Assembly: GCA_000310025.1 (NCBI GenBank)
Contig: FN648905.1
Location: 552,317-616,316 of the forward strand
DNA length: 64,000 nucleotides
DNA from: Ectocarpus siliculosus
Taxonomy: Eukaryota; Sar; Phaeophyceae; Ectocarpales; Ectocarpaceae
Reading direction: 5' to 3'
Part shown: positions 3,361 to 63,725 of the stretch, piece after piece
Numbering within the stretch: position 1 is the first letter of the stretch
Layout of the letters: the number at the start of each line of letters is the position of its first letter
Translations under genes and position numbers: made by a program
The notes under the pieces: generated by a model
What the model saw: only the letters and a program-made list of their open reading frames with translations
Told to the model about the DNA's origin: nothing
The model's database searches: none

Positions 3361-3370
3361 CATACTGCAA

Positions 3371-3418: not shown

Positions 3419-3429
3419 TAGTAAAGCAA

Positions 3430-4085: not shown

Positions 4086-4089
4086 GCAC

Positions 4090-17359: not shown

Positions 17360-17443
17360 ATGAGTGGGACGTGGTGCACGATCGAGAGTGACCCTGGCGT
17401 ATTCACGGAGTTGATTGAAAGCATCGGGGTCCATGGAGTACAG
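17360..17443 (+). CDS. UCHL5: UCHL5 exon 1 (start codon, residues 1-28)
   Basis: Starts at ATG 17360 and encodes [15 protein letters not shown] then [13 protein letters not shown], the highly conserved N terminus of UCH37 proteins. The ATG sits only five residues before the family-typical WC-x-IESDPG block, so it is the natural start. The exon ends after CAG (Gln28) at a GTGCGC donor, a weaker form than the usual GTAAGT/GTGAGT. The codon after the splice is Val, giving the expected GVQ-VEELY junction. Confidence 0.93.
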
Positions 17444-20400
17444 GTGCGCAGTATTACAACTTGCAAGCTGGTGGAGTGGGGGGCTCGGCGATGGAATCGC
17501 ACTTATACGCTCTGCTCTTTCTTTCCAGAGACGCGGCGATCAAGAGACTGCTGTTTCATCTTGTGTAGTCCACGTAGCTGCACTCTGTTCTGTGTCACGA
17601 AAGCTTGGGAGTGCGTGCTGCGATCGATACAGGGAGTCCTACTTAATGCGGAGTTTCTTGATTCTGTTCCTTGAGGTTCGATGTGCGGGTGTGTGCATGC
17701 GCTGGCCGTGCAGGCGCTATTAATAGCATCATAACGCGATAGCAGACCTATCTTAGAAGCCAGCTTAGACCAAGCAATAGATTGGGTTGCTGCCATGCTA
17801 CTGCTTGTGTTCCTCTGTTGTCCCAGCAGAAGCATGGCGCTTTGGGCGCGTCCCAATCACTGCATGCCAACGGGCCGTCAGCGTACCATCTTCAGGAGAG
17901 ACTCGGCCGAAACTACCCGATCTGTCGTTTCAACTTGAACATCAGGAAGCATGACACTTGTGCGCATTATTTCATGGCTCGCGCAAAAGAACACAACGCA
18001 TGCGTGTCCAGTGGTCAGCAACCTCGTGACCACGGATTGCGTTTCTATATCGATGACCCATGGTCAAGACCACTACGCAATTTGCGGACGTTGGTAAACC
18101 TATCGACTTAGTTTTGGACTTGGCCGATTTCCTGCTCGTTCGCTAAGATCACATACTGTAATACGTTCGTTCGATAGGTATTCGCGACATTCCTATGTTC
18201 GATTTTCGAGAAGGGTGAATACAGGCGTAGCTGCTGCATTCCCTTTCAGCAGTTGTATACCACTGTCAGGAACGGATCGTGAGAATTCGGCGTCTCCTCT
18301 ACATTCCACGTGGTAAGCAAGTGACTTCTCCTTCGATCTCGTGACCCCCTCGATGGCAAATAGATCCTCCGAATCACGATTTGTCGAGCCGCCCTCCCCA
18401 CAGCCGAAGCAGCCATCCAGCTCGCGTCGCCCGTTTCACAACGATAGGACGCGCCCCAAAGTATCCGTTTGTATGTGGATGCTTATGCGGAGCGGACGCG
18501 CCCAAAACGCAAAACATGATGCATGACATGCAACCAGAAGCATTTCACCGTTAAGGAGAACGATCTCGCACGGGTGTTGAGCAAATTACGTGGAGGAAGG
18601 GCAAAGTAGAGAGCTTCCGAGAACCAACGTGAAGGGGGAAGCCGCACGTCTGCTCGGAATCGTCATTGGCAGTTTGTGATTGGCATCAGAGTATGTCTTG
18701 CAGAAAAGGTCGATCCCAACAAGATACGTGCGATTGGTCATTCGTATCGTGGACGCAGTCAAGCGATATGCTGCGGTGCTTGTGGCCACCGTTTTTGCAG
18801 TGCCTTAACCACTGTCTATATTTTAATGTGAAGACAACAACAATATCCGGACATCGGGTGGCGTTCGAACGTATGCAGGCTTCTGTGGATTCGCGACTCT
18901 TGTTGGGCTTTTGTTCTCTGTCCCGCAACACACACGCCGCACGTTTCTGTGAACAGCAGGCGGTGACCCAAATAGGATACGAACAGTGGGGTCACACGCA
19001 CTCATTTTGCGTAGACCCGTTTGCCGTTAACCCTTCTAGTACTGGACGCCCAAATGGTGACACTTTGGGGACACAGCACTCAAATGTCTGTTTACCGCAC
19101 CATAGTCGCCCTGAAGCTCCGCTGTGTGAAACAGACGTGAGAACCCTAGGTCTATCATGCTTGGGTGAGGTGGTACGCTGTGTGATATGCTGTGTGATGC
19201 CTCTCGTCGGCCTCTAACATGCTGTACACAATCTCCCAAGCCGCGTGTCCCCTGGGTGGTAACACTGTACATAGCCTGGAACTGGAAACATTTGCTGACT
19301 TGGAAACTTATCCCCACGTGTTTTGGGGACACTTTTCATGCTGAAGCCATGTCACCCTTTTTCTCGCGAGTAGCTCGGCCCTCTCCGCATTGTTTTGGAG
19401 GGACTGTAGCCCCTCGGCCAGTAACTGACAAATAATTTGCGATATAGACATATTTTTGCGGAGAGACCGCGTGCTCGGAGGGTTAAGTGTAGCCTGGGAT
19501 GACCAAGAGATGTGTTTGGATCATGTGTTGCGGTGGCTGGCAGAGAGGGCAAGGTGAAAGGAGAACTAGCACCGGAGAGTCGAAACCAATTGACAACGGC
19601 TGGCGGCACATCTGCTCAGGGTGGCAGTTTGTTGTACACTTCTGTGTGTCGTGCTTGGACAACAGACCGTGAATTTTAGAGCCGAGCCCCCGAGGCGCGA
19701 GGAATCATCCCATCGGCCGACTTGCACTACTTTACAAGCTATCAGCAATCATAAGCTCCATCGGTGCCTCTGCTTTGACGTTTGGCCCAGTCGGAATTCG
19801 GCCGTCCACCCTCGGAACACGCGGGTTCTCTCGGCACCTTATTGCTCCGATCTCGATCAAATTGGGCGTAAACGTCACTTATCTGCCACCAAACGGAAGC
19901 TCCGTCCAATCTCCAAAACGACGGATAGCTCCTTCGAGGCCGGGATGGCTGTGTGTCTACTTATTTCTCCTGCCAACGACAGATCCAGGGCACACCTCGG
20001 CCACCTGTCCCGGCGATGCAATCTTGTTCTTGTTGCACACGTGCGCATGCAAGTCGCTGACTCTCGTCTCCGGGCACATTAAGGGGACCCAGACAAGCCC
20101 GGTAATCAGAGGCCTCTGAACCGTAACAAAAAAATGCCTGAAACCGTCGAAAATTGTGCATGTTTGGGGGGGGGACATATAAGCCCACAAAACCTATACG
20201 AACTGGGGACGGCCCTATCGACAGCAGTGCACAGCCCCGACAGCCGCGGTAGGGAGCACAAGACGCCACCCACTAGCACAGGATCTAGCCAGATGGAAGG
20301 CTCAACCAGCCCCCTAGCGAAACAGGCCCGCAGGTCAACGGACGCCATGCAGACGCCCAACCAAGAGGAGGCTGCCCCTGCGGGAATTCATCCTCCGCAG

Positions 20401-23400
20401 CAGTAGCAGCAGCAACAACAGCAGCAGCAGCAGGGACAGCAGCAGCAGCAGCGGGAACGGCATCAGCAGCCGCAAACTGGGTCCCAACAGGACACTGGCC
20501 CAGCACGAGGAGCCGCTGGTCACTTGGCAGGAGGACCCCGAAGGAGCCAGGACGTGCGGGCGATTCCACGCTCAAGTGGTCAGTCGCGTCAACCTGCAGG
20601 CGAGTACCTACGCCGCAGCGGTTACTGCTGTGGCAGTAGCAGAGAGGAGGGGGAATGCCGTACATCCTGCCGTAACTACTTAGGGCTAACGAATCGCGGG
20701 GCTTACAAGGGGTCCCTGGGCGAAATGCTTTGAACGATAATGCAAACCGCGTGGGCGTCGTACTGAAATCCCAGTGCTTGACCATCTCTTCTTTTTTTCG
20801 GTGAACACAGCAGACGTGACATAAGATACCACCCCCCTGCCCCTTGATCGATTTGTAAAGCTACAATCTACATCATCGCGAGGAGGAGGCATTGTTCGGA
20901 GGACAATTATTTTGAGGTTCTCGACAGGTAGCGGATGCAGGGCGTGCACTATTACCACCGCCTAGCTTGTTGCCGCTTCGAAATAATTCGATATTTACAC
21001 TTGGGCCCAGTGTTACATAATATCCCCCCCCCCCCCCCCCCCATCCCGCGGGGATCGATTTGTAAAGCACGATTACACCATCACTGTGAGGAGGCATTCC
21101 CCAAACGACATTTTTTCGTAACTTGTAGGCAGGTAGCGGATGGGCATGCATTTTTAGCGCCACCACACTTGTTGCCGCTTCGAAAGAATTCGATATTTAC
21201 ACATCGGCCCGGTGTTACATGATATACCACCCCGCGCTCCCGCCCCGATGTTTGCCATCGGGGTTGGGTTTTCGTCGCTTGGCAACGACGTTGTAAAACA
21301 AGCCGCCCACCCTGGTGTTTGCCATCGGGATTGGGTTTTCGTCGCTTGGCAACGACGTTGTAAAACAAGCCAATTCACTTCGTGAACTCGGCAACCAGGT
21401 TGTTACCGCTTTTTTTTTTTCCTCTGTTTTTTTTGGGCGGTAACCATGAATGGTGGTCGAGTAGATCATGTTGTGCGGGGTGGAGAACCTCACTCCGCGC
21501 AAGGGGGATAATCGCACCACGTTGTGTTAAATTGATCAAGTACCCTCAAGGCAGATACACGGTGCTTACAACTGTCTCACAAGAAAACAAATTAAGTCAT
21601 ACGCAGCCGTCATCCGAAGGCAAGGAAGTAAGCACAAGATGCCGAACACCCTTAGCAGGATGCAGCGCACCCTTCATGCGACTCGCCGAATACCTCACGG
21701 CGCTTCGCGCTTGGTGATGTGAGAGCCTGGTCCGGTGAGAACCCGGCGTGCTCCGTCCCGGCTTTGTAGGGATGCGAGGTCAATGGTCTAACGACTACGG
21801 CATGCACGACTATGAGTACACCCCCCCCCCCCCCCCCTCCCGTATCGATTTGTAAAGTTCCATACAGCCATTACGAGGAGAAGGCATTACCCAAACGACA
21901 TTTTTTCGTAGGTTGTCAACAGGTAGCGGATCCAGCTCCTCCTTTCTCGGAGCTGCCACACTTGCTGCCGCTATGAAATAATTCGGCCCAAATGTGCTGT
22001 ATATGGTAGCCTACGGTACATTCCATCGTAGCACACCTCGCGCGAGGCGGTAGTACGCAGCACCTGGCAGAACCGAATACAGATAACCACACCGATGTCC
22101 GCCATCTTTTCCGTGCAAACTTTCCGTGCAGAAAGTTCTGGACCGCGAGGTGTCAAGAGACGGCGACGCCGGATATTGCTTGGCCAAGAGGGTCCGCCAT
22201 CAGGTCTACTACGGGGCCTCCGCGGATCTCCTTTGCAAAGGCATGGGCAACCAGTGTACCGCGGGTGCCTGCATGAGAGCTGCCGCACAGGTCTACGCCG
22301 GAGACGGAACTGACGGGGTCCCGGCGGAGACTGTGCGCGCCATGTGCAAGTCCTAGGCCGTGAAACAAGTTGTTAGCATTGGGGACACGACTTGTTCTCA
22401 ACTGCTGCTGTCTGTAACACAAACCGTGCGAAAGGCCACCTTCGACACGGGTGTTGTTCAACGTAGAACCCGATTGGACGGGCCATTCAGCTCCAGGTTT
22501 CTCTGGTTTCATTTGACTTGCTTTTTAATGTAAAGCGTGTCTTGGCAGTAGGGGTGGAAATGGAAGATGGGGTCATTAAGGGCTGTTCTGTAGCGACCAC
22601 GGTGAGCGTCCCCGGGAATTTCAGAGGCGATAATACCTTGCACTTGTACCAGGACCGTGGTCTAGATGGACTGTCTAGAGAGTTGTACCCGTTTTTATGG
22701 TTCGGCTTGTGATCACGGAAGGCGTCCGCGCCGGGACCACTACAGATGTTAGAGTAGAAGGTGTTGGGCGGAGACCGGCCTGGATTTTGTTGTGAAGAAA
22801 ATAATATTGCGATACATGTGCACTAGTGTTTTCTTCAGCTTACCCCTTATGATTCGGGGTCATTGTTGTTTCGCTTCTTCTTTTTTTTTCGATATATTTT
22901 CGTACACCGCGATGTACCGCCTCCTCCATTACCCAGGAATCCCACCCTTGGGGTACAGCTGTGCCCGCTGCCCAATGGCCTATTTTCAATCCACTCAATC
23001 CGCCTGTCGATGGGGCCACAAAGGGGGTGGTAACACCGTGCCCTCAGGCATGTGTTCTTGAAGCTTGAGGTCTAAGATTAAGATTTGTACAGCTCACCAA
23101 CTGCCGATGTGGTGTCAACACGAATTATCGCACGTGCTTTCCACATTCTAGGACGGCCCGGTCATACTCGCGACAAACCGGATACCGTAAGTTACGGAGT
23201 TTTCCTTCGGGGAGGGGATCGTTTTTTTTTCTGAAACCAAACCCCCTAGGGGGGAAATTGACGTTCTGCGGGGGTTCGTTTTTTTTTTCCAAAGCTACCC
23301 CGGCGGGACGAACCCCCCCCCCCGGGGCGTTGTGCAAAATAATGATGGTCCACACATCACCTATGTTCCGGACAACACAGAGAGAGGTGAAAGTGAGATG

Positions 23401-26400
23401 GATAAGGTTTATGACCAAGTGACAAACGGTGCCTAAATGTCGCTCGAAGCGCAGACCTGCGAGTGAATTTTCTGTCCCATATCATGCTTTTTGTGCTCTG
23501 CGATGCAACAAAATCGACTCAAAAAAGATGGGAAATACATCCCCCCAGAGGGGGACTCGTGGCAAAAATGGTACCCCGGGGAGAAATGGACATACCCGGG
23601 GGGATTATTGACATACCCGGGGGGATTATTTTTTGGGTCGAAAACGATCTACCCCGGGGCTAAATCAACGAACTCATGCTTCCAGGCCGAAAAGAAAGGT
23701 GATGGGGGGAGGGGGAAACTCTAAGCCAGGGGGAAAACTCCGTAAGTTACGGTATGCCGCTGGCACGAGCCGATTGAACACAATTTCCTCCCGAGACACA
23801 AACACCAAAAACCAAGATTGCGACAAACGAAACTCACTCGCAAACAAATCCGTATTGTGTCACTACTCTCTTTATCTACGGTCACGTATCCTGCTGGCAG
23901 GCGCCTACTTGACCCCTTGCGAGACGCAAACACTTCGTCCGTCGCCGAAAGCGCAAAGAAACAAATCGTACTCGTAGCTCCCTTCTGTGCTACGACTTAG
24001 CCATTGGACTTTTGAACCTCCCACTTTTTCCGGACCTCGAACCAAATCTTCGGCCCCTTCCTCGCGGGTTTGTGTGCCACCAGAAACTGGTGGCTAACGA
24101 GTGCTTCTAGACAAGAGACACACACGCCGCCGGTCTTGCGTCCTCCCATCCGGACCTCCTCTAACAGCTTGTCATTGTTTTCGTGTTGCTCCCTCCAGAG
24201 TTGTACTCTGGAGTCGCTGTGCCACCCGCCCCCTTCCTCGTCCTCGGATTTCCTGTCGGACGTCCTGTAGGCGGCGGTCCTCCTCCGCCATTTGACTCGC
24301 GGTCACCTTCGGCATCTTTGCCCTGGGCGGCAGTCTGTTCCCTGAGCACTGCTTTCGTTTTATAGACTCACCGAAGGCTTCGATGGTATTATAACTCAGC
24401 GCCAGCACATGCTCTACGCGACGCACTTTGAGCCAACACCCGCTGGGTCGGACCTGTCGAAGGTGTTTTCTAATGTCGTCAGCGCCGATCGATTGGCGCC
24501 TATCCTCCATGATACCACCTGCAGCAGACCAGCGACCATTCACGAAGCATGAGGATAACACTGAGGGGCATGTGGGGCCCAAAATACCGCTACAAGTCAT
24601 CCGGCAAGGGCGTTCGAGCACACTCCAACAGACGCTTGTATCCAGGTTTTGTACATATATTCAACACAAATTATATATCGTAATGCCGAGAACACGCTTG
24701 ACATTCTCAAAAGAGCGTGTGGCATTACTTACTTGGTTGGTCTCCGTCGCCGAGGACCAGCGAAGTACCGCAAAAGGTACCGTACAACAACCGCGACACC
24801 CGTTCATACGCGCACAGAGAGGACACCAGCAAACCGCGACAAGCTGTACTTTTTCTATACTAAATCCCTATTAATAAGGGTTTCACCATAGTAGTACGGA
24901 AAACGCCGTAACTCGACCAATTTAAAGAGGAACCTGGTCCGTTGTATATCATATGAAAGGTATTTCTCCTGAGCATCGTTTGAGCCATCTCTGACACAGA
25001 TCTGTAAGGTTGGTGGTGGTGAAAACGCCTATATAGATACAAATACCGAGGACTGCTGTACAGGACTTATATCGCCACCCATAACTTTTTCGTCCGGGCC
25101 TCTTTCAGTTCCAAACTCGGCGAAAGTGCTGAGAATGTCAAGTACGACTATATGCGATAAGTTAGACTAACCTCTACCGCTTGTGCCGGCACCCATGTGT
25201 GCGTTTCTACACCTTACGGTCCAGTTTGGGGCGATCACGGAGCCCCCTTTCCACCGCAGCAGAACGTATACATGGCAACACGTATTCGAGAATCTGACGC
25301 TACCAGACGACCCTCCACATCCAGGGCTGCTCGTAGATATACATCCGACCAGGTTCCTCTCTCTGTAAGCGAAGCTAGGGCAAGAGCGCCGTCCTGTGCT
25401 GCTGCTCTGGTCCGCAAAAATACACATGCACAAGAACCAATCTTGCCACCAGCAACGATTTCTTACGAACTGGTTGCTCTTGTTCATCACAGTCGGCAGT
25501 CAGCAGTGCTGTGAGTGTGTGCAACGGGGTGTACCTGCTGTTTCATCCAGCACCTTGTCCTCGTCTCCCGGTGGCCCACCAAAGTAGCGGGTGCTGGTCT
25601 CTGCTGTGGCTGATTTTCGAACCAAAAGGGGGGTTTCCAGCCGTTCTAAAGGCTAGATGTGTGGTTTTTCCGAACCGGAACATAGGTTGTCTGGGTCCCC
25701 TTAATCTCTTTTCCTTGCACCCGCGGATGAACTGTTGATCTCATGGCAGCGAACGCTGTATAGCGCGCATGAGTTCACTCCTTTGATTGAGTGTGGATCT
25801 CCATCTCGTCTGTGCTACCTACATCGGTTGGGATCGCTGTCCGTCGGCACTCATCGCGTTCATGCAAACACGGTTGTAACGCACCATCCGGTAGTGTGAC
25901 GACGACACGGTCTTACAATTATTATGCAACCCACGAAAATCTCTTACTAAAGTATCTGCACGCTTGACTATGGCAAGCTGTGTTGCCAATAAGATATACT
26001 TCTACAATTGTATAAGGGTTGTGGACCCGGAGATCTATCGCCTCCCCGTCCTCCGTTGAGGGTGGGCGTCACACATTGTAGTAGATGGGCCTAGAGGCTT
26101 AAACTGCACACCACGTGCTGAAGACGGCAACACCATAGCTGGAATACGGGAGTCGTAGATTTCTGAAGCTTAAGCTTCAGTCTCATCTTTAGATATCCGT
26201 GGGTGGGTGGAACTTTCATTCGCATCGCCCACCCCTTGTCCGACCCTGTCTCAAATGCTGATCTCGAGCTACAGTGCAAATCTCGTGGCTCCTCAAGTAT
26301 TGTTCGGTAGGGAATCGCAACCCATGACCTCTCCCCGAGTTTGAGCAGCCTCCACCTCCTGTGGCCGACACGACTCGGCCTTGACTGTTCATTGTCTGTT

Positions 26401-53400: not shown

Positions 53401-56400
53401 ATTTCAATACCTTACCAAAAATCTCGGTACGCTTCTTTGAGATCTCAAAACCTAGCCGAGCGTTCCGGTACCTTACCGAACACACCCTTGGGAATTTTTG
53501 TAAATCCTGCTAAGGCTTTTGTGGCGCAGAATACATTGTACGTCCCCGTGGTATAGAGCCAGCGTTTTCAACTTTGAGCGTCAAGTACATGCGCCACGGG
53601 GTGCTGGCGGTGCTCGGGCGTGCGCATCAATGTACCGACGACCCCCCTGCGTGCCCCTGGGAAGGAAGCGTGAGAAAAGATTGACTTTCGCCAGCGAAAT
53701 ATGTCCCGAAGCACAAACGCAGGCGAAATGATACATATACATGCAAGGTTCCCCTGCGGGAGGTAGGTGATTTGCCGCCCGGGGGCGACGCAAGAGAACA
53801 TGGCCAATAATGCCATCGCGGTCGCATGGTTGGTCGTCATAACGTTCGGTAGTGCCGGCTTGCGTTCAACCTGAATACGAATAATTTGCCTGGAATTTGC
53901 ATCACATGTGCGGGGTATTTTTAGAAAGTATACATAACTTCACAGAAAGACTACCCGTTCGAGATATAACCTCAGTCGAAAGGGATGTGGTGAGTCTTTT
54001 CAGCAAGTGAATTGAAACCGACTGGAGACGGGTCTTGTTTTGAGTTTGTGTAAGCCTTACACTGAGTTATCAGTGATGCTAGTTGGTGCTAAGAACAAAA
54101 GCATCTGTATAGGCAGATAATTTCTAACACATCCCCTGTAGTTTTCTACTGGGTCGACGACAGAACTATCGGGGAGAAGCTCTCCGTTGTGTCATGTGTT
54201 ATAGACTGTGACCTTCACAGGGGACATGGCGCAGTGTCGTTTGAAAACTTGCTGTTTTTAGAAAGTACTTCGTCTCTTCTGTTTTAGACGATTTGAATCT
54301 AGACTACAGTATGTACAGCAGTAGGACTGTTGTACACCTATCACAACGTTTTTGAAAATTGTTTGAGTTTCAACAGTTGGAGTTGTACTGTAGATTTGAG
54401 TAGTAGCTGTTTCCCACTCATTTTGAAATCTACAATGTTTTGTTGTTCATCGTGTAGGTGAAACGCGCTGAAAGGGAGGGCGATACATAGAATAGTAGGT
54501 TAGGAGTGATAATTATTTGCAGAAATGTGGAGTTTAGTCCTTCTTGTGTGTAATGTATCAACGAGGCAAATTAACAGGCGGCGGTCAGCACAGCATTAGA
54601 GTAGGTAGAACTTCCCTGTTTTTCTTCGACCGGTGGGTGTCGAAGAGTGTTGTCGAGACCGTTTGTAGCGTGTCTCAGCCATGTTGTAGAGCATCCTTCA
54701 CGAAGGGCAGTAGTAGCAGCAACGAGGAGTAGTCGATTGTAGTGGATCTTTTGTTTTCTCCCGCCGTGACTTTCCCTAGTGCGCGAGTGAGTGGTTTTGG
54801 CTATAGCGGTTTGCTGCAGGTCCTACTGCTGTAATCCGCTGCGTTTGATCACTTCCACTTTTTGTGTGATCGTGTTTCCCATGGTCTGTGGGACTTTTTC
54901 ACGCATACACCAACAACAACGGATCAAAGAGACGCTCAACGTGCCTAAGAACAGTCACAGATACAATCTAGACTGCTACCGAACCAAACTTCTATATTTG
55001 ACTTTCGATTTCTCGGAATTGAAATGTGCAAATTACCGCTGCCAGAGTTGTGCGAGAGGACTTCTGTGTCGCGTGGTGTGTTCCCACCAGCATCAAGAGT
55101 CTTGATCCCCGCTGTGGGTACGCATGCGCCAGTTGCCGTGTGGTGGTTGTGTGGACGACAATCACAGCAGCAGTTGTGTGGGCGCGTGGCGCGTGGCGCG
55201 GGGTAAAAAAAGTTCTGTTTTCAGTTTTCGTGCCGAGGAGGCTTTTATGGTTCGGATTACCAACCCCTGAAAGAAGAGCCAGTCCCAGCGACTTTAGGCG
55301 GCCCTAACGCGCACCATCGGTGTCTCGCGAGCCCCACACGTAACGGGTAGTGTACCGTCGGGTCCTCTGCGTGCCATGCAGAACAAAGTGCGACGAGAAA
55401 AAGCGCTGTCCCAGAGGAGAAAAACGACTACGAAGAGCAGAAAAGCCGAAATCCTACATATACATACAAGGTTGGTTCCCCTGCGGGAGTTAGGTGATCT
55501 GCCTCCCGGGGGCGACGCAAGAGGACATGGCCACTCAATGTCATCGCGGTCGCATGGATGGTTGGTCGTCATGACGTTCGGTAGTGCCGGTGTGCGTGCA
55601 ACCTGCATACTAATAATGCCTGGAATTTGCATCATATGTGCGGGGTATTTTGTTTTCTCCCGCCGTGACTTTTCGCTTGTGCGCGAGTGTGTGCTCTTTG
55701 GCTAGCGGCGTCCCTGCTGTAGGTCCTACTGCTGCAATCCGCTGCGTTTGATCACTTACTCTTCTTGTGTGATCGTGTTTCCCATGGTCTGTGGGGCGTT
55801 TTCACGCAAATACCAACAACGGATCAGCGCTCAACGTACCCAAGAACAGTCACACGCGTAGACTGCTCCAGTCCCACAACTTCTGCATTTGATTTTTTTT
55901 TATTTTCGGAATTGAAATTTAAGTGACCGCTTCCAGAGTTGTGCGAGAGGACTTCTGTGTCGCGTGGTGTGTTCCCAAGAGCCACATCAAGAGTCTTGGT
56001 CCCCGCTGCGGGTAAGCATGCACCAGCAGCTGTGTGGGCGCGTGGGTGCGTGGCACGTGGCGCGGGGCAAAAAAAAAGTTACGTTTTCAGTTTTCATCCC
56101 GACAGAGGAGGCTTTTATGTTTCGGATTCCCAACCCCCGAAAGAAGAGCCAGTCCCAGCGACTTTAGGCGGCCTAACGCGCACCACCGGTGTTTCGCGAG
56201 CCCCACACGTAATGGGTAATGTACCGACGGGTCCTGCTGCGTCCCATGCAGAAGAAAGTGCGAGAAAAATCGCTGTCCCAGCGGAGAAAACCGAAGGCGA
56301 CCACCCAAAAAATCGAAAAACTGCATACTGCACATGCATTCAAGGTTCCCCTGCGGGAGTTAGGTGACCTGCCTCCCGGGGGCGACGCAAGAGGACATGA

Positions 56401-59400
56401 TGGCCAATCAGTGTCATCGCGGTAGCATGGTTGCATCTCAACGTCATGACATTCGTTAGTGCCGGTTTTGCGTGCGACCTGCATAGTTTGCCTGGATTTT
56501 GCATCATGTGCGGGGTATTTTGTTTTCTCCCGCCGTGACTTTTCGCGTGTGCGCGAGTGTGTGCTTTTAGGCTAGTGGGGTCTTTGCTGCAGGTCCTACG
56601 GCTATAATCCGCTGCGTTTGATCGCTTAGTCTTGTGTGATCGTGTCCCATGTTATGTGGGACTATTTCCCGCAAACACAATCAAAGGATCAAGTAGACTG
56701 CTCACCACATGTTTGAATTGTTCGATTTTTCGGAATTGAAATTTAAATGACCGCTGCCAGAGTTGTGCGAGAGGACTTCTGTGTCGCGTGATGTGTTCCC
56801 ATGAGCAACATCAAGAGCCTTGGTCCCCTCTGCGGCCATGAGAAACCGCTGTTTACATCTGTGGTTGACAGCTGTGTTGTGTTTGCGGCACACACGGGAC
56901 TGTACAAGAACGAAAACTGCCGTGCAGTTGGCTGGTTGAAGAAAAGACGCTCCGTCGCCACTTATCGAATTCCAACGGATGCCAATGATGTTGAATGTTC
57001 GTGGGGGTATTTATTTGTTGTCCTTGATTCAGTTGCAATGTACCATGTGTGTTGAGCTCCAGCGCGTAGCTGGTCTTCTTTCAGTATCGTGTATGTTCTC
57101 AACAAACGAACAACCCGCAAAACTCATCATGGAAAAGACACGCGCAACGCAGAAGATGGTATAGACAGGCGTTGAAATCTGAGTTTTGTGAGGAGCGGAA
57201 GATGAAATACTAGCTGGCCAATCAAAGAGCAGCAGCATGGAGTCAGCGTGAAGTTTCTGAACTCTGACTGGAATGGACGTGGGTGCACTTGCTGGTCTGT
57301 CCCAAACAAGCAAGGTAGCGTGAGGCTGCTGCAGCCAAAAGGTATTTTGGAGATCTATTCCTTTCAGGTACGTCTGTGATGTTGAAGTTTACTGTTCTCT
57401 TCGTTGGGTCAGTGGAGAAACGGGGTTGTGTGGGTCTTCCATATAGATCATGGTGCTGCAGAACAGACCGCCAAAGAGGAAAACGCGAAAACACCCCCTC
57501 GGCGGCCATATATCTGTGGAAGCATTGTTGCCCTCCATTGCTTGACTGACACCGCTCGGCCCTTTGTGGTCGACAGTTGCGATCATCATGTATCCACAAC
57601 GGCAAAACGGCACTACTGTGCACAGTTTGTGTCAGTAGCTCGTAAAATTTACTTCCCGTATCTGCCCCGCTGCTCTTGGACGGCTGTGGACAGCCGAATG
57701 TAGTCAACCTTTTCGTTTATCATGGATGAATGCGACAAATGGTGTTCAGCGGGGATACCGATGGGGGGACTATTGTATTGCGCGTCGGTCACAGACCGGC
57801 AACTGCGATGGTCACGAGTGGCCTCGCAGCGGCAAATTGCACCGTGTGTATTCATAGGCGTACACGCCGGCGCTGCAATTTGAACCGGTATCTCTCTTCA
57901 TGTGTGTCTTGTTGCATCTAAACGTGGTGCTCGTCTAACGATGTAGCTGCGTACCACAATGAAAAAGAAAGCACGTGAACATGCAACGCCACAGAACGCA
58001 CATCTCATCCTCTACCAGCTACTGCCGCTCGGCCCTTGGGCCGACAGCTGTGGTCATCATTTATACCACAACGACAAGCTTGTATGTGTTTACCGTATCC
58101 ACCCCGCTGCTCTTTGGCTGCTGTCGACAGCTGAGTGGGTTTGCAAGAGCAACCACTTGGCGGAAACATTCTTCGCACATAGACGTCTATGCGAGAAATG
58201 TTGTTCAGCGGCGATACCTATCGAGGGCTACTGCGCTTCGGTCACTGACCGACAGCTGCGATGGTCACAAATGACCTCACAGCGGCAAATTGCACGCTGC
58301 AGTTCGAACCAGCGCCGCCCTTCTGTGTGTGTGGTGTCTTGTTGCGTCTCAAACGGTGGTGTGTTTCCACGATGTGGTTCGTACCACATGAGAAAGAAGA
58401 CCAAATGCCAACGGCATCAACAGCATGGCTTCGCCGTGCCATGCTATCGTTTTCAAAGAAACATGTTAGACGTACCAGTGAGTTCGGGCTGCAATCGCGT
58501 CCGATTCGGTGGCGCAGCCCCACCTCCCGCGTTCGTCGTTGATCGCGTCGGTGAAGCGCGCGTCCTATCCTCTCCAGGCCCAGACCTCTTAGCTACAACA
58601 AGCTAACGCCAAGAACACAGAAGAACACGACTTCTTGACCTCCAAACCTGACAAATCCTTAGTATCCTTCTCTCTCAGTTCACCTACTGCTGTGTAGCTC
58701 TCCTGTTCTACGCTGCCCGGTGTGCCTTCTCCTTGCACGCGAGTTCTCCCAGAGAGTAATCACTCCAAAGGGTCCTCTTCCAAATCTGGTACCCCAAATA
58801 CAGGAACAAAAACGCCTTTGGCAAATTCGATGGGAATGACAGGCATCGGCTACAACTTCCTTTTTTGTCCCACTCACCAACTGTCCGCAAGCAAATATAT
58901 TGCGATACTGCGTTTGTTCTCTCATTTGCATTGTACATAGTGTCCGTTGGGCTTAAATGTTTGACAGATAGTCCTTCCTCTACAGAACGAGAGGTTTTGC
59001 ACCGCGACCTAGATCTACCCCAAGCACCACCGACCTAGCACCTACCCAGTACCAACCTAGCAATCTCGACCCTGTCCCGGCAACACCAACCTTGAACTTA
59101 CCTCGTCAACACCAAACTAGCACCTATGCCACCTATGCTGGCACACCAACCTTGACCTTGTCCACCCAACGCCAACCAACCTGTTACGTGTGGGATGCAG
59201 TTCGGGTTAGCGTTAGAGTTCAACCGGTTTCTTCATGCTCCGGCCACCGCCTAAGAAGTTGTTACCAACGGATATGCATAAAACTACGTATAGGAATTGG
59301 TGCAAGTCAGCGGACGAACTCCATGGTTGAAAGGATAGAGAGCCAGACTGACGCAGGGTAGGACAGGAGTTCGAGATTGAACACATGTTCTCCAATTTGT

Positions 59401-60273
59401 TCGGCCGGTGTATGCATATAAAGGTCTGGGTGCATGAGTTTTCTGCGTCCCCCGGGGCGCATAAATATGGTCAGGGAGTTATCGCTGCTGTACGCATAGT
59501 TCTAGGCGTGATGTGCCACCCACAAACTGATATAGGAGCAAATTATGTTATAGCTCTTGTCACGTATTGGTTCTCGGGAGATCTCTACTCTGCCCACAAA
59601 GCACACCCGACACACTGCTGTGTACGACATCGAGCGTGTGAACACGGTAGAAGGTTTGCTTTAAACGCGTACTAGAGCGACCAACGGAGCGGATGCACAC
59701 TGCCAGTCGAAGGATCCCTGCCAATTGTATTTCGAGGTGGGAATTGTCACCGTGCGGAGTTAAGAGTCCCCTCTTTGTGCGAGCACAACAACACGCACGC
59801 AACTGTCACAGGCAATTCCAAGAAGATGTGCAGATAGCCCTTGTCACACTGGATGTCGGGAGCTTTCTACTTTGCCTGTTCTTCACCTGTTGAGCTCAAA
59901 GAGCGCCGCAGCAAGCAACCGAGAGAGTCTTCTTTGAAATGTTCTCCCTTTCTACCCGAGCTAACCTTGTGACCTGCATCTGCTTGCCCGTAAGTCTTCG
60001 GGCAGCCTAACGCTGTGCGCGTGTGTTACCTGCCACCTGACGGACCCCCGGTGATTGTTTTCGGTAGGTTTTTGAGCTGGATGGTCTGAAATCTGGGCCA
60101 GTGAATTTGGGCGACATCCCTGGGCATGGTGGAAACCTCGCTAGCACTTCTTGCTCTGGAGTCCACGGTGACGACTGGCTAAGCGTGGCGTCCCCGGCGA
60201 TCGAGGAGCGCATCGCTAGGTACTCTGCCGGAGAGATCCGGTTCAACCTCTTGGCGATCGTCAAGAACCGCAT
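17360..60273 (+). CDS. UCHL5: UCHL5/UCH37-type ubiquitin C-terminal hydrolase, six exons seen, 3' end not found
   Basis: Cysteine protease of peptidase family C12 that removes ubiquitin. In animals, UCH37 binds the 26S proteasome through Rpn13 and the INO80 complex. Coding exons are 17360-17443, 35304-35450, 35786-35848, 37123-37188, 37394-37540 and 60068-60273; together they encode 237 complete codons plus 2 nt. All internal introns are phase 0. Family landmarks appear in order: [34 protein letters not shown], the oxyanion Gln77 in FFARQ, catalytic Cys83 in NACATQAI, His159 in DAFHF, Asp174 in FELDGL, and [13 protein letters not shown] closing the UCH domain. These residues are each five positions below human Gln82, Cys88, His164 and Asp179, so spacing is fully conserved. 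The coding portion is intact. The C-terminal coil and ULD, needed in animals for Rpn13 binding, are not seen; they probably lie past the last donor and perhaps past the window. A stop codon at 60275-60277 would instead give a 238-residue catalytic-core protein. Confidence 0.93.
19027..19486. mobile_element. piggyBac-type non-autonomous element, TTAA target duplication
   Basis: TTAA at 19027-19030 is followed by CCCTTCTAGTACTGGACG, and the other edge is CGTGCTCGGAGGG followed by TTAA at 19483-19486. The ends (CCCTTC / CCCTCC inward) are short inverted repeats, and exact TTAA duplication is the mark of piggyBac transposition. About 450 bp, with no transposase frame. Confidence 0.65.
20134..20733 (+). 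pseudogene. Q-rich ORF interrupted by one stop
   Basis: An ATG frame at 20134 reads through [20 protein letters not shown] and [11 protein letters not shown] to a TAG at 20404-20406, then continues open in the same frame through a poly-Gln tract coded by CAG repeats and on to a TGA at 20731-20733, with [25 protein letters not shown] and a four-cysteine patch (YCCG...ECRTSC). A single stop inside a CAG run of an otherwise 199-codon frame suggests a recently dead gag-like or host ORF, but CAG repeats alone keep frames open, so this is weak. Confidence 0.3.
20815..21235. repeat. two tandem ~200-bp units related to the 10.1-kb MITE
   Basis: Units carry TCGATTTGTAAAGC, GAGGAGGCATT, GACAGGTAGCGGATG / GGCAGGTAGCGGATG, CTTGTTGCCGCTTCGAAA and ATTCGATATTTACAC. 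A 19-C run at 21024-21042 separates them. A third unit lies at 21821-21995. Confidence 0.8.
21245..21375. repeat. two direct ~57-bp units
   Basis: GTTTGCCATCGGG(G/A)TTGGG, TTTTCGTCGCTTGGCAACGA and CGTTGTAAAACAAGCC occur twice, at about 21249-21305 and 21316-21372, nearly identical and therefore young. Confidence 0.85.
21821..21995. repeat. third unit of the 20.8-kb tandem family
   Basis: Begins with a 17-C run (21821-21837), then CGTATCGATTTGTAAAG, ACGAGGAGAAGGCATTACCC, ACGACATTTTTTCGTAG, CAACAGGTAGCGGAT, and GCTGCCGCTATGAAATAATT. Confidence 0.75.
22129..22356 (+). CDS. exon-like cysteine-containing ORF nested in UCHL5 intron 1
   Basis: Open from a plausible acceptor (TTTCCGTGCAG ending 22131 or the frame just upstream) to a TAG at 22354-22356. 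Translation: [74 protein letters not shown]. Five cysteines, mixed helical composition, and GC-rich third positions that contrast with the surrounding repeats make it look like a genuine terminal exon. There is no ATG before it in frame, so upstream exons would be needed, or it is a captured gene fragment. I do not recognise the family. Confidence 0.4.
   Translation, partial: QKVLDREVSRDGDAGYCLAKRVRHQVYYGASADLLCKGMGNQCTAGACMRAAAQVYAGDGTDGVPAETVRAMCKS
23182..23755. mobile_element. 574-bp TIR element with 24-bp ends and G/C-run interior
   Basis: The left end ATACCGTAAGTTACGGAG (23182 on) is matched by the right end CTCCGTAAGTTACGGTAT (to 23755); the 24-bp ends differ at one palindromic centre base. 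The interior holds palindromic CCCCCTAGGGGGG, a long C-run near 23310, and two direct copies of ATACCCGGGGGGATTATT at about 23593-23632. No transposase. Frames inside are low-complexity. The flanks 22360-23181 and 23756-24170 hold nothing recognisable. Confidence 0.85.
24172..24621 (-). other. minus-strand ORF of uncertain status
   Basis: A 149-codon open frame. Its first part ([58 protein letters not shown]) looks protein-like, and a good donor GTGAGT follows EAFG at about 24375. The part after this is Arg-rich and overlaps other frames. I do not recognise a family; transposon remnant or gene fragment are both possible. The following 24622-26199 region contains only short frames. Confidence 0.25.
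26200..28460. repeat. ~1-kb tandem duplication with a thrice-repeated ~100-bp block
   Basis: The block TCGGTAGGGAATC..., CCCGAGTTTGAGCA and CCTCCTGTGGCCGACA occurs near 26310, 27310 and 27530. CTTCCGGTGGGTCAGAG plus downstream GGGGTCCCCC(A)CACACCCACC occurs at 27070-27250 and 28048-28220, and CGCATCT...CAAGCGTATTGA near 26800 matches CGCATCT...CAAGCATTATGA near 27860. The 216-codon minus-strand frame at 26216-26866 lies within this and is probably a repeat shadow. Confidence 0.7.
28984..29166 (+). pseudogene. 60-codon ORF resembling one Kelch-type blade
   Basis: ATG at 28984, TAA at 29164-29166. The end of the peptide, [16 protein letters not shown] then [11 protein letters not shown], has the spacing of a Kelch repeat (W-x-x-L-x-x-A-P, then a hydrophobic strand and VVGDKIYxxxS). 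Only one blade is present, lacking the usual GG pair, so at most this is a fragment of a Kelch gene. Flanks 28461-28983 and 29167-31400 hold no other recognisable gene. Confidence 0.3.
31415..31745. repeat. dispersed repeat, copy 1 (partner 51850-52200)
   Basis: TTGTTGTCTTCACATTAA, CGTTCTCTCTACCCACTACC, CAACACTTGACACGG, CTTACTTACCCAAAAATA, CTCCGCTCGCCTC and a purine-rich AAAGAAAGAACAAG tract follow in the same order as at 51850-52200. The partner carries CTTGACGGGGTCGATTCCCG, which looks like a tRNA T-arm, so a SINE origin is conceivable. Confidence 0.7.
31765..32050 (+). repeat. left arm of a dispersed inverted pair
   Basis: Contains ACTATACCGGGGACC, GGTGAAAAACTGGCGC, CGGACGGGTGAT, ATGTCGCATAGTCATGG, CTTGCGCGTGGCAAC and TTGGTGACCAAGTAGAC. 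The complement of the whole series lies at 33670-33963. Confidence 0.85.
32400..32690 (+). repeat. direct repeat, partner 34290-34500
   Basis: CATTTTCATCACGGCTGTCC, TTGGTAGTTCCTTCGCAGTA, TTTTTCCC, CCTTACC, CGCTTCCAACAAAATTG and CAAGCTCAACTGCC match CATTTTCGTCACGACTGTCC and following sequence at 34315-34490. Confidence 0.75.
33670..33963 (-). repeat. right arm of the inverted pair
   Basis: Reads GTCTACTTGGTCACCAA, GTTGCCACGCGCAAGCAAG, CTGACTATGCGACATAAT, CACCCGTCCG, CGCGCGCCAGTTTTTCATCT and GATCCCGGTACAGTTCGG, complementary to 31765-32050. The 1.6-kb spacer has further copies of TCCGCAGTATT-type motifs. Confidence 0.85.
34690..35165 (+). repeat. hairpin-tailed repeat unit, copy lacking the hairpin
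   Basis: Starts TTTCGGTAGTGCCGGTTTTC and runs through ACGGGGTATTTTGTTTCTC, GCTGCAGGTCCTACTGCTG, CCATGGTCTGTGGGACTTG, CCCCGGGGTATAGAGCCAGT, CGTGCCCCTGAGAAGGAA to ATGATACATATACATA. It then breaks off where the hairpin would begin, 140 bp before UCHL5 exon 2. Confidence 0.85.
35304..35450 (+). CDS. UCHL5: UCHL5 exon 2 (residues 29-77)
   Basis: Acceptor TTGGTGCAG ends at 35303. The 49 codons read [12 protein letters not shown]..., [11 protein letters not shown], an acidic variable loop ([16 protein letters not shown]) and LFFARQ. The last Gln is the oxyanion-hole residue of the UCH active site. The donor is GTAAAT at 35451. A remnant of a hairpin-tailed repeat unit ends roughly 140 bp upstream of the acceptor, so mobile DNA has come close to this exon without breaking it. 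Confidence 0.94.
35786..35848 (+). CDS. UCHL5: UCHL5 exon 3 (residues 78-98, catalytic Cys)
   Basis: A 63-base micro-exon encoding [16 protein letters not shown] then NCANK. Cys83 in NACATQ is the catalytic nucleophile of peptidase family C12. The acceptor is GTTGGCAG ending at 35785 and the donor GTAGGA at 35849. A frame-preserving 63-nt exon bearing the nucleophile could be skipped without a frameshift, which would give a catalytically dead isoform; this is inference only. Confidence 0.94.
35849..37122 (+). other. UCHL5 intron 3 (1.27 kb), no other feature seen
   Basis: The intron separates the exon ending NCANK from the exon starting IDIGETL, which are contiguous in homologues. Several short open frames are present but none resembles a known domain. 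Confidence 0.85.
37123..37188 (+). CDS. UCHL5: UCHL5 exon 4 (residues 99-120)
   Basis: A 66-base exon encoding [13 protein letters not shown] then TRDFPPEMK, the conserved IGxxLSxFxxFTxxFPPxxK segment between the nucleophile and the active-site crossover loop. Acceptor TTTTGGCCAG ends at 37122. The donor is GTGCGT, the same weak G-C-G pattern as exon 1. Confidence 0.93.
37394..37540 (+). CDS. UCHL5: UCHL5 exon 5 (residues 121-169, catalytic His)
   Basis: Encodes [17 protein letters not shown] and SRQEPF, an acidic crossover-loop stretch ([10 protein letters not shown]), then [14 protein letters not shown]. His159 in AFHF is the catalytic histidine. Acceptor ATATGCGCAG ends at 37393; the donor is a strong GTAAGT at 37541 and opens the 22.5-kb intron 5. 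Confidence 0.95.
38505..38600 (+). repeat. GA-rich low-complexity tract
   Basis: Imperfect GAGA/GACAGA repeats with interspersed ATATGAGA; purine only for long stretches. Confidence 0.8.
39440..39682 (+). repeat. family C copy 1, left part
   Basis: ATTCCAATCCGTTTAGGATT, TTTCAGCTACGGAAAAAA, GATTCCGCGGCATCA, GACCGCGGCCAATTTCTC, GTGCCTTCGCGCGACCTAC and AATCAAAGCGACACCGG match 48925-49160. The copy is cut at 39683 by a TTAA-flanked insertion and resumes at 40770. Confidence 0.85.
39687..40765. mobile_element. 1079-bp piggyBac-type element inserted in family C copy 1
   Basis: TTAA at 39683-39686 precedes CCCCTTTGGGTCTAGGC; the other end is GCCTGAAGACTCAAAAGGG followed by TTAA at 40766-40769. The ends are imperfect inverted repeats. 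The uninterrupted family C copy at 48925-50205 serves as an empty-site control. No transposase frame was found inside; a minus-strand open frame at 40040-40498 has no recognisable motif. Confidence 0.8.
40770..41800 (+). repeat. family C copy 1, right part
   Basis: Matches 49190-50205: TTTTTTCGCCACGGC, GATGCGCTAGGA, TTTCGGCTGGTTTTCGGATC, CCCAGCACACGAAAT, CGCCATCCGACCTGCACGC, TTTCGTCATCC, and the GACGAAACCATATGC end. The 199-codon minus-strand frame here is broken in the other copy, so it is not a conserved gene. Confidence 0.85.
42415..43194 (+). other. 259-codon ATG ORF, unrecognised
   Basis: The longest uninterrupted ATG frame in the window. It starts [20 protein letters not shown]; the middle is basic and Ser/Pro-rich; the end is a Pro/Ser/Arg-rich tail. 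One internal cysteine pair (CVSCFDR) is not a recognised motif. A piece (CCGAAACGCACGGTTTTTCG, CATCCACGACC) recurs near 53018-53050, hinting at repeat origin. It has no splice or promoter evidence. It could be a remnant of a gag-like frame or chance. Confidence 0.2.
43310..43455 (+). repeat. dispersed repeat, partner 48300-48460
   Basis: GGGAGGTTTCTGCGCAGATT, GTGATCAGTCCG, ACATTTCCTGTTGCGAAATA, CCCTGGCGG, TCGGGAATAAAT and CCGGTGTCGTTGCCTATTTG align with 48330-48455. Confidence 0.8.
43505..44205 (+). repeat. ~510-bp direct duplication
   Basis: GTTCACCTGTA, AGGCTACAGCAGCA, GTCGTTGGCAGTATTACAG, AAACAAACTTGCAGTT, ATGTGCATGC and ACTTAAAGCACAAGC at 43512-43720 recur in diverged form at 44025-44200. 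Confidence 0.75.
44480..44860 (+). repeat. family E, copy 1 (partner 63405-63725)
   Basis: TCTCGTCCAATG, GAGGTGACAGT, GTACTTCACGGTGCT, CTCGGCTCGCCCTGGGAGTC, GCTGTGATCG, GACTGAAATAGTGGTTGCG recur at 63405-63725. A part (GAGCTCGCGACA, GGGCGCTGTGATC) is also doubled inside this copy at 44630 and 44822. Confidence 0.8.
45007..45055 (+). repeat. hairpin motif, isolated diverged copy
   Basis: ACAAGGTCTCCCTTCGGGAC, GTGGGTGTCTACCC, TCAGGTGACGCAAGA: same order as the other hairpins, with the stem eroded. Confidence 0.65.
45495..45800 (+). repeat. hairpin-tailed repeat unit joined to an OTU remnant
   Basis: GCGCGGAACGCGTCCCCGCG, GAGCCAGTTTTCGCAACTTT, TGTACCGACGAGCCTCCTGC, GTGCCCCTGAGAAGGAATTG, then the hairpin at 45738-45789 ending GGGGGCGACGCAAGAGG. 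The OTU remnant begins directly beyond it on the opposite strand, as at 3.4 kb. Confidence 0.85.
45875..46370 (-). pseudogene. OTU-type cysteine protease domain (Helitron-like element copy 2)
   Basis: Minus strand: an Asn/Gly/Asp-rich linker ([18 protein letters not shown]), then [18 protein letters not shown] (nucleophile block), [32 protein letters not shown], a stop after HPQQTY, and further on in shifted frames [10 protein letters not shown] and the histidine block HQHYRTLRY. It is better preserved than copy 1 but still broken in its second half. No Pif1 helicase was found next to it, so this copy is truncated. The Asn-rich linker comes from AAC/GTT-type repeats. Confidence 0.8.
46840..48310 (+). 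repeat. tandem array of hairpin-tailed units (about 2.3 units)
   Basis: Units begin near 46850 (TGCAGAATTTGCGTGGAACT), 47530 (TTCGGTAGTGCCGATTTTAA) and 48125 (TTCGGTGGTGCCACGG). The first two run through GTCTGTGGGAC-type sequence, CCCCGGGGTATAGAGCCAGT / CCCCGGGGTGTAGAGCCAGT, GGGCGTCAAGCA, GAGAAGGAAC, and hairpins at 47431-47477 and 48032-48085. The first unit also has an internal duplication of CTGTTCGC(C/G)TGTACGT. 46390-46840 holds only short repeats of AATTCCAATAATAG. Confidence 0.85.
48678..48920. repeat. palindromic minisatellite with ACCGA/TCGGT units
   Basis: GGGTGTGTTCGGTAAGGTAC leads into repeated CCGAAAATATCGGTATGC and TTTCAATACCTTACCG units of ~45 bp. The same edge, complemented (CCGAACACACCCTTGG), closes the block at 53360-53495. 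Confidence 0.8.
48925..50205 (+). repeat. family C copy 2, uninterrupted
   Basis: Aligns with 39440-39682 plus 40770-41800. It contains its own ~143-bp tandem duplication: CCCTGGTCGGATCACGTACA, AGGGGGTG(C/A)CGCAAAATGCAA and TTCAGCGGCTGTCGCTTGGT occur at about 49727-49860 and 49868-50000. A CCCTAACCC motif at about 49688 is telomere-like but isolated. Confidence 0.85.
50212..51442 (+). mobile_element. complete TIR element with internal ~220-bp tandem repeats (copy C)
   Basis: The left end AGGCTGAGTCTTACGGCTTG (50212 on) is complemented by the right end CAAGCCATAAGACTCGGCCT (to 51442). The interior has three tandem units near 50660, 50895 and 51110 with the motifs given for copy A. No transposase. 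It lies directly against the end of family C copy 2. This copy defines the family borders. Confidence 0.88.
51843..52200 (+). repeat. GTT microsatellite and dispersed repeat copy 2
   Basis: Seven GTT units start near 51845, then the sequence aligned with 31415-31745. The stem-loop ACGGG-GTCGATT-CCCGT near 51935 resembles a tRNA T-arm, but no other tRNA arm is evident. The adjacent 52200-53360 segment has a 15-C run at 52313-52327 and no gene. Confidence 0.7.
53360..53495. repeat. palindromic ACCGA/TCGGT minisatellite, second block
   Basis: TTTCAGTACCTCACCGATAT, TCTCGGTACGCTTCGG(T), TTTCAATACCTTACC repeat; ends CCGAACACACCCTTGGG, complementary to the start of the 48678 block. Confidence 0.8.
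53500..53865 (+). repeat. hairpin-tailed unit, 3' part
   Basis: GTCCCCGTGGTATAGAGCCA, GAGCGTCAAGTACATGCGCC, TGTACCGACGACCCCCCTGC, GTGCCCCTGGGAAGGAAGCG and the hairpin at 53743-53794, then TTCGGTAGTGCCGGC. 53866-54730 holds no recognisable gene. Confidence 0.85.
54730..56830 (+). repeat. tandem array of hairpin-tailed units (about 2.4 units, ~880 bp each)
   Basis: Units start with CTCCCGCCGTGACTTT at about 54760, 55658 and 56528, followed by GCAGGTCCTACTGCTG, GATCGTGTTTCCCATGGTCT, AGAGTTGTGCGAGAGGACTT, GGCGCGGGGTAAAAAAAGTT or near match, AAAGAAGAGCCAGTCCCAGC, GCGACTTTAGGCGGCC, and hairpins at 55467-55521 and 56341-56391. The middle part (GTCCCAGCGACTTTAGGCGG) differs from the 47-kb array, so two subfamilies share the same hairpin tail. 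High identity between adjacent units suggests recent local duplication. Confidence 0.88.
57540..58320 (+). repeat. direct duplication, offset ~460-470 bp
   Basis: CCGCTCGGCCCTT, GACAGTTGCGATCATCAT, TGCCCCGCTGCTCTTGG, TGTTCAGCGGGGATACC, CGGTCACAGACCGGCAACTG and CGATGGTCAC at 57550-57815 recur at 58020-58270. 56831-57539 shows no recognisable gene. Confidence 0.8.
57959..58606 (+). other. 215-codon ATG ORF over the duplicated block, unrecognised
   Basis: Starts [20 protein letters not shown] and carries many Cys and His residues ([28 protein letters not shown]) without a spacing I recognise. The upstream duplicate does not keep this frame open, so it is unlikely to be a conserved gene. 58607-60067 has no recognisable gene. 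Confidence 0.15.
60068..60273 (+). CDS. UCHL5: UCHL5 exon 6 (catalytic Asp to end of UCH domain)
   Basis: Acceptor TTTTCGGTAG ends at 60067. The exon reads [16 protein letters not shown], a Gly/Ser-rich insert ([18 protein letters not shown]) that appears longer than in animal UCH37, then [18 protein letters not shown] and [16 protein letters not shown]. Asp174 in FELDGL completes the Cys-His-Asp triad. The frame stays open up to CGCAT followed by GTAAGC, a good donor in phase 2. If unspliced, the frame reads Met then TAA at 60275-60277. In the family, a coil and the ULD follow this point, so splicing onward is the more likely reading. Confidence 0.94.
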
Positions 60274-63404: not shown

Positions 63405-63725
63405 ACGTTCTCGAACAAAGTCTCGTCCAATGGCTGGCACGCTTATTTAGAGGTGACTGTGCTATGCGTAGATTCGCCCTGGTGTCGTTGCGAAGTCGGA
63501 GATTTATGCGTACTTCACGGTGCTCTAGCTCGGCTCGCCCTTGGAGTCTTGAGGTCGCGAAAGGGAGGGGCGTTGTGATCGAAAGATGGGCACGCTCAGG
63601 TTGGCGAAGATAGCCGTAAGAAGTTGTTTTATCGCCATTTCAAACCGATGTACCGCACCACAATGTCTAGCTGAAAGACTGAAATAACGGTTGCGTACGA
63701 CTCAGTGCCCTAACTCGACTTGGTT
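63405..63725 (+). repeat. family E, copy 2
   Basis: Aligns with 44480-44815 over the motifs named there. The 208-codon frame at 62611-63237 just before it overlaps the foldback arm and copy D and is not called. 63726-64000 shows nothing recognisable. Confidence 0.75.

What the first reader, a model, noticed from the sequence alone, without database searches (positions are those of the whole stretch)
17360..60273. A conserved proteasome-linked protease gene stretched over ~43 kb
Six exons encoding an intact UCH37 catalytic domain total about 0.7 kb, yet introns 1 and 5 are 17.9 and 22.5 kb. Exon borders, frame and triad spacing are all preserved although the introns hold many mobile elements. 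A core housekeeping gene with introns this size would need long transcription time and accurate recognition of 63- and 66-nt exons.
Basis: partly seen in the sequence, partly recalled or inferred. Interest (0 to 1): 0.8.

Follow-up and report, generated by a model that had tools for sequence, protein, structure and literature searches.

The report
Giant-intron UCH37 gene, brown-algal V chromosome
The stretched gene is real: it is a brown alga's only detected UCH37-type deubiquitinase gene, and it lies on what looks like the male sex-determining region, where mobile DNA has swollen three of its nine introns.

Summary
The six exons and five junctions are in the sequence exactly as listed. All are GT-AG, joined in frame, with no stop, and encode a UCH37/UCHL5 catalytic domain (Pfam C12 E=4.4e-62; 124/220 residues identical to human UCHL5). 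The gene does not end at 60273: four more exons beyond the window complete a 380-aa protein with the UCHL5-type C-terminal domain. It has 10 exons over 54,969 bp, with introns of 17,860, 22,527 and 10,131 bp and six of 205-1,274 bp. Such introns are outliers here: 0 of 110 control introns exceed 2.6 kb.

The genome is a brown alga's. The 683-kb scaffold also carries an HMG-box match and both Memo matches found in the genome, both core gene types of the brown-algal male (V) sex-determining region. A 'ubiquitin C-terminal hydrolase' is a published sex-linked gene there. Best reading: an intact, sex-linked UCH37 gene whose introns grew by transposon insertion in non-recombining DNA. One 5.6-kb TTAA-flanked element in intron 1 shows an insertion directly.

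The parts
17360..17443 (+). UCH37 exon 1 (start ATG; 84 nt)
   Evidence: start Met aligns near the human UCHL5 N-terminus
17444..35303 (+). intron 1, 17,860 bp; at least 7,663 bp match other places in the genome
20083..25700 (.). 5,618-bp DNA-transposon-like element inside intron 1: perfect 14-bp terminal inverted repeats (GGGGACCCAGACAA) between two TTAA copies (20079-20082, 25701-25704); long blocks of it recur at 92.9-97.0% identity on C12, C71, C22 and C25
35304..35450 (+). UCH37 exon 2 (147 nt)
35786..35848 (+). UCH37 exon 3 (63 nt; Cys83, NACATQ)
37123..37188 (+). UCH37 exon 4 (66 nt)
37394..37540 (+). UCH37 exon 5 (147 nt; His159, DAFHF)
37541..60067 (+). intron 5, 22,527 bp; at least 9,614 of the 19,968 bp searched (40100-60067) match other places in the genome
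50218..51441 (.). dispersed repeat in intron 5: related copies upstream of the gene (7637-8863) and in intron 6 (60989-62152); 37 of 45 genome matches (itself included) cover 1,000 or more of its 1,224 bases; only 40 of 183 candidates were scored
60068..60273 (+). UCH37 exon 6 (206 nt; Asp174, FELDG), phase 2, donor GTAAGC; read-through meets a stop at intron bases 2-4
60274..64000 (+). first 3.7 kb of intron 6 (10,131 bp in all); exons 7-10 lie beyond the window at scaffold C340:622721-622841, 623337-623440, 623684-623789, 624546-624641 plus stop

Best explanation
This is an intact UCHL5/UCH37 deubiquitinase gene (10 exons, 380 aa, 55 kb) in the non-recombining male (V) sex-determining region of a brown alga, most likely an Ectocarpales species. 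It is probably the orthologue of Ectocarpus Ec-13_001980. Shown: exon structure, full domain set, the only UCHL5-type gene found, linkage on one scaffold to an HMG-box match and the only Memo matches found, and repeats of transposon type inside the large introns. Inferred: the scaffold is the V-SDR; absent recombination and weaker selection let transposons accumulate, so three introns grew to 10-22 kb while six stayed ordinary; the gene is transcribed and spliced across them; and the protein works with autosomal RPN13 at the proteasome as a ubiquitin hydrolase.
For: Exons and frame; C12 plus UCH_C domains over their cut-offs; active-site motifs aligned; RPN13 Pru domain on C6. Introns: UCH37 3 of 9 over 10 kb, controls 0 of 110 over 2.6 kb (CCT 46, kinesin 64), Fisher p=3e-4. 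Published Ectocarpus medians: 524 bp autosomes, 765 bp sex chromosome (PMC12477816, passages). Scaffold C340 is 683,462 bp, 0.36% of the assembly, yet carries UCH37, an HMG-box match (two half-boxes read by eye in open stretches about 140 bases apart) and both Memo matches reported for the genome. The HMG gene MIN and a MEMO-like gene are ancestral V-SDR genes (PMC12592211, section 7 part 1). [quoted passage not shown] Longer introns in SDR genes are published (PMC8278619, passages). Intron 1 holds a TTAA-flanked element with 14/14 terminal repeats and close copies elsewhere.
Against: No RNA, no male/female read depth and no female assembly, so sex linkage in this species is inferred from gene content. 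Ec-13_001980 was not compared by sequence. The HMG match is modest (30.4 bits, cut-off 25.4); HMG matches at E<=0.1 occur on ten other contigs, nine with one over the cut-off; and a Pfam scan of the open stretch holding the first half-box gave no match at E<=0.01. The gap between the two Memo matches is only 439 bp (19 profile positions in between are unaccounted for) and the HMG halves are also close, so SDR location alone does not make an intron giant. The UCH gene is not named in the passage on the seven ancestral V-SDR genes. Published DN/DS for a 570-nt part of Ec-13_001980 is 2.077 with no polymorphism, which fits relaxed constraint as well as function.
Confidence: 0.83

Rival explanations
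1. Ordinary autosomal UCH37 gene in a transposon-rich stretch; the HMG-box and MEMO genes on the scaffold are coincidental or joined by mis-scaffolding.
For: HMG matches at E<=0.1 occur on ten other contigs; the MEMO stretch L017 contains 100 N, so C340 is a scaffold, not one contig.
Against: Both reported Memo matches lie on a scaffold that is 0.36% of the assembly, together with an HMG match and a UCH gene, gene types published as sex-linked. No gap inside the gene: 0 N in window or intron 6.
Confidence: 0.1
2. Decaying V copy (pseudogene): exons still open but no longer joined into a mature mRNA.
For: Three giant introns rich in repeats; published fast evolution and relaxed selection of SDR genes; a 2026 PLoS Biology paper (listing and abstract start only) reports elevated intron retention in algal mating-type regions. 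Read-through from exon 6 meets a stop at once.
Against: 380 codons without a stop or frameshift, 18 canonical splice sites, active-site motifs and C-terminal domain kept. For the Ectocarpus gene, a paper that made cDNA and amplified coding regions reports sequence and an expression ratio.
Confidence: 0.05
3. Assembly artefact: the exons belong to a compact gene and foreign repeat blocks were misassembled between them.
For: Repeats over 5 kb can confuse assemblers (general knowledge).
Against: No N in the gene. The intron-1 element is flanked by a perfect TTAA duplication as in real insertion. Three introns in the same gene are affected.
Confidence: 0.02

Closest known systems
UCHL5/UCH37 (human; PDB 3IHR, 4UEL and others)
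   Same: C12 catalytic domain 56% identical (124/220), active-site motifs, UCH_C domain; length 380 aa against 328-331 in near-complete PDB chains
   Different: about 15 extra residues before the GDDW motif; gene probably on a sex chromosome
Ectocarpus Ec-13_001980 (ubiquitin C-terminal hydrolase of the SDR)
   Same: product name, coding length 1110 against 1,143 nt, probable SDR linkage
Long-intron genes of the brown-algal U/V sex-determining regions
   Same: long introns with many repeats (published); gene density was not measured here
   Different: here 10-22 kb, far above the published sex-chromosome median of 765 bp
TTAA-target DNA transposons (piggyBac-like; Sola3 also uses TTAA, both recalled)
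   Same: TTAA duplication and terminal inverted repeats
   Different: terminal repeats start GGGG; no transposase domain in the eight open frames of the element tested (seven, one)

Membership tests
UCHL5/UCH37 | Peptidase C12 domain with Cys, His, Asp and Gln of the active site | tested here: met
   which residues are catalytic is recalled
UCHL5/UCH37 | C-terminal UCH_C/ULD-type extension absent from UCHL1/UCHL3 | tested here: met
   PF18031 E=2.5e-14 on the 380-aa protein; genome search: one match over cut-off, C340:623676-623756; two others below it, on C33 and C2
UCHL5/UCH37 | binding to RPN13 on the proteasome | not testable with these tools
   an RPN13 Pru domain gene exists on C6; binding needs an assay
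brown-algal V-SDR | carries the male-determining HMG-box gene MIN | tested here: inconclusive
   HMG_box match over cut-off on the same scaffold; identity as MIN not proven, no reference sequence, no Pfam match in the open stretch holding the first half-box
brown-algal V-SDR | carries ancestral SDR genes such as MEMO | tested here: met
   both reported Memo matches are on C340; one is over the cut-off with its neighbours in the frame, one is below
brown-algal V-SDR | male-specific coverage and no recombination with U | not testable with these tools
   no reads or crosses
brown-algal V-SDR | STE20 kinase, casein kinase and GTPase-activating protein on the same region | not tested
   genome searches spent (12 of 12)
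piggyBac-type transposon (element in intron 1) | TTAA target duplication and terminal inverted repeats | tested here: met
   14 of 14; the next best TTAA pair 0.5-12 kb apart in the window reaches 11
piggyBac-type transposon (element in intron 1) | DDE transposase gene | tested here: inconclusive
   none in the 8 open frames of the element scanned; it may be non-autonomous or another TTAA family

The most novel reading that the evidence does not exclude
UCH37, a proteasome and chromatin deubiquitinase treated elsewhere as a general cell component, is here encoded only on the male-determining chromosome, so female gametophytes either use a strongly diverged U copy or have no UCH37 at all. The giant introns could also delay or gate its expression, making proteasome editing differ between the sexes.
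Probability: 0.4. Interest if true: 0.65.

Novelty: new member of a known kind. Interest (0 to 1): 0.42.

Why it matters
It ties a single sequence oddity to the life history of a sex chromosome: one gene shows intact coding exons next to introns enlarged by recognisable insertions. It also gives the published, loosely named sex-linked 'ubiquitin C-terminal hydrolase' a likely precise identity (UCH37), which makes a clear test possible: do the two sexes of a brown alga differ in proteasome-bound deubiquitinase? It is also a ready gene for measuring splicing accuracy across 10-22 kb introns in a genome whose measured control introns have medians near 0.5 kb.

Tried and rejected
Coccidian parasite: no SAG/SRS match (the tool warns that nothing rang anywhere, so this alone is weak). 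Chromera velia: suspected from genome size and antenna proteins, and its genome paper was seen in passages; rejected because an antenna protein is 172/177 identical to chain 17 of PDB 9YGV, an entry code that occurs in a giant-kelp photosystem I paper (listing and abstract start only). Debris or pseudogene: held unlikely on the completed 10-exon gene. Nested host genes in the giant introns: Pfam scans of 30 open frames of the window that I chose (10 each; some lie outside the introns) gave one match over its cut-off, a Pif1 2B domain at 4386-4700, upstream of the gene; the window has 231 open frames of 90 aa or more, so coverage is partial. Nine open frames of the surrounding scaffold gave no match at E<=0.01. 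No tRNA and no Rfam match at gathering score in the window. The 2014 paper that I recall as first describing the Ectocarpus SDR is not held, so SDR intron length is cited from the background section of PMC8278619. A paper search for UCHL5/UCH37 with brown-alga terms returned 7,125 papers holding any two of five terms; none of the 10 listed holds UCHL5 or UCH37; that is no proof of absence.

Full report
OBSERVATION. The window is G000:C340:552317-616316, plus strand, in a 189.5-Mb assembly of 492 contigs. The six listed exons join into 713 nt with no stop, all internal borders GT-AG, exons 1-5 ending in phase 0 and exon 6 in phase 2. The 237-aa product matches Pfam Peptidase_C12 at 4.4e-62. Its best solved relatives are UCHL5 chains (E=6.5e-75), ahead of BAP1/calypso (4e-46 at best) and UCHL3 (3.5e-16). 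Over the aligned part 124 of 220 residues equal human UCHL5. The motifs FFARQ, NACATQ, DAFHF and FELDG start at residues 73, 81, 156 and 171 and align with the human ones. That these hold the catalytic Gln, Cys, His and Asp is recalled.

THE GENE IS LARGER THAN REPORTED. Exon 6 ends at 60273 before GTAAGC. A genome search with the UCH_C profile found one match over cut-off, at C340:623676-623756, 11 kb downstream on the same strand; two weaker ones on C33 and C2 were below it. Reading that locus gives four further exons with AG/GT borders and compatible phases: 622721-622841, 623337-623440, 623684-623789 and 624546-624641 followed by TAA. The completed protein is 380 aa and carries C12 (1.3e-61) and UCH_C (2.5e-14). 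The gene spans 54,969 bp; introns are 17860, 335, 1274, 205, 22527, 10131, 495, 243 and 756 bp. It therefore consists of four exon islands (1 | 2-5 | 6 | 7-10). The 63- and 66-nt exons sit inside an island, so the harder recognition problem is exon 1 and exon 6. If intron 6 is retained, translation stops one codon after the catalytic-domain exon, at intron bases 2-4.

ONLY COPY FOUND. The C12 profile gave seven matches, four on C340 and three on C17. The C17 matches span about 4 kb and no UCH_C match lies on that contig, so it looks like a UCHL1/L3-type gene (inference). The same search missed two of the six window exons, so a missing match does not prove absence. An RPN13 Pru-domain gene lies on C6.

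ARE THE INTRONS UNUSUAL? From all 73 CCT and all 145 kinesin exon matches listed (row counts checked; 122 of 191 kinesin candidates were scored) I took neighbouring matches with query gaps of -15 to 12 positions: 46 and 64 introns, medians 554 and 415 bp, maxima 2561 and 2291 bp. Relaxing the gap rule gives 63 and 101 consecutive pairs, some of which may span more than one intron; the largest gap is 5,916 bp. UCH37 has 3 of 9 above 10 kb; Fisher p = 3e-4 against the 110, 1e-4 against all 164. Two families are a small control set, and pairs over 60 kb apart were excluded by design. Ectocarpus medians in print are 524 bp (autosomes) and 765 bp (sex chromosome), and that paper finds its longest transposon classes enriched in young genes, not ancient ones (PMC12477816, passages). 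By animal standards such introns are ordinary (recalled).

WHAT ORGANISM. The genome has 87 matches to the chlorophyll-binding family. One such protein is 172/177 identical to chain 17 of PDB 9YGV, a code that occurs in a giant-kelp photosystem I paper (listing and abstract start). So it is a brown alga; the species is not determined.

WHERE IN THE GENOME. C340 is 683,462 bp, 0.36% of the assembly. It carries an HMG-box match over cut-off at 106974-107084, and two halves of an HMG box can be read by eye in open stretches about 140 bases apart; a Pfam scan of the stretch with the first half gave nothing at E<=0.01. HMG matches at E<=0.1 also occur on ten other contigs. Both Memo matches reported for the genome are at C340:214354-215014. 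In brown algae the male-determining MIN is an HMG-box gene, and a MEMO-like gene is among the seven ancestral V-SDR genes (PMC12592211, section 7 part 1; HMG identity from PMC11057875, passages). Ec-13_001980, annotated 'Ubiquitin C-terminal hydrolase' with a CDS of 1110 nt, is an SDR gene of Ectocarpus (PMC6027523, passages). Lipinska et al. [quoted passage not shown] In the kelp S. japonica the MEMO gene sits on an autosome as a retrogene (Ec-13_001810/SJ13722; SJ13722 named Memo-like). HMG, MEMO and UCH together on one scaffold thus point to the V-SDR of an Ectocarpales-like alga. This is linkage evidence, not a demonstration of male specificity. The UCH gene is not named in the passage on the seven ancestral V-SDR genes.

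WHY THE INTRONS ARE LONG. Matches elsewhere in the genome cover at least 7,663 of 17,860 bp of intron 1 and 9,614 of the 19,968 bp searched of intron 5 (lower bounds, since only 39 of 5,504 and 39 of 3,684 first-look candidates were scored). In intron 1, a 5,618-bp element at 20083-25700 has perfect 14-bp terminal inverted repeats between two TTAA copies. Among all pairs of the 90 TTAA sites 0.5-12 kb apart, no other exceeds 11 of 14. Long blocks of it recur at 92.9-97.0% identity on C12, C71, C22 and C25; short internal sub-repeats are less alike. The insertion family is therefore fairly young (inference). A 1.2-kb repeat occurs upstream of the gene, in intron 5 and in intron 6; 45 genome matches were listed, 37 of them covering 1,000 or more of 1,224 bases. 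Longer introns in Ectocarpus SDR genes are published (PMC8278619, background), as are repeat-rich, gene-poor V chromosomes (PMC12592211, passages). The mechanism I favour is insertion plus weak removal in non-recombining DNA. The small gaps seen in the MEMO and HMG genes suggest that chance decides which introns grow.

VERDICT. A real, intact and probably expressed gene whose size is well explained by its likely place in a UV sex-determining region. The sex linkage of a ubiquitin hydrolase gene is known. Its likely identity as UCH37, its complete structure, the 55-kb extent and the recognisable insertion are what this adds.

Noticed in passing
window 4386-4700 (-), with 3281-4371 (-) and 45621-46402 (-): Pif1 helicase 2B domain fragment (PF21530, 1.5e-11), plus open frames that share 66% DNA identity between 3368-3885 and 45738-46222; the latter resemble the OTU part of Helitrons by recall only (no Pfam match for the three frames scanned).
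   Followed up: partly
window 60272-60277: The donor of exon 6 overlaps an in-frame ATG-TAA, so retention of intron 6 would yield a catalytic-domain-only UCH37.
   Followed up: partly
G000:C92, C232, C488: 18 light-harvesting matches with the same score (127.6 bits) on three contigs, 10, 3 and 5: a recent amplification or duplicated contigs.
   Followed up: no
G000:C16:100199-282213: 29 further light-harvesting matches, exon by exon, on both strands in 182 kb.
   Followed up: no
window 49723-50009: Two 142-bp tandem copies about 91% alike inside intron 5.
   Followed up: no
L014 5248-5752 (scaffold C340 about 621.56-622.07 kb, intron 6, outside the window): Long simple repeat that reads as repeated Leu-Ser on the minus strand.
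   Followed up: no
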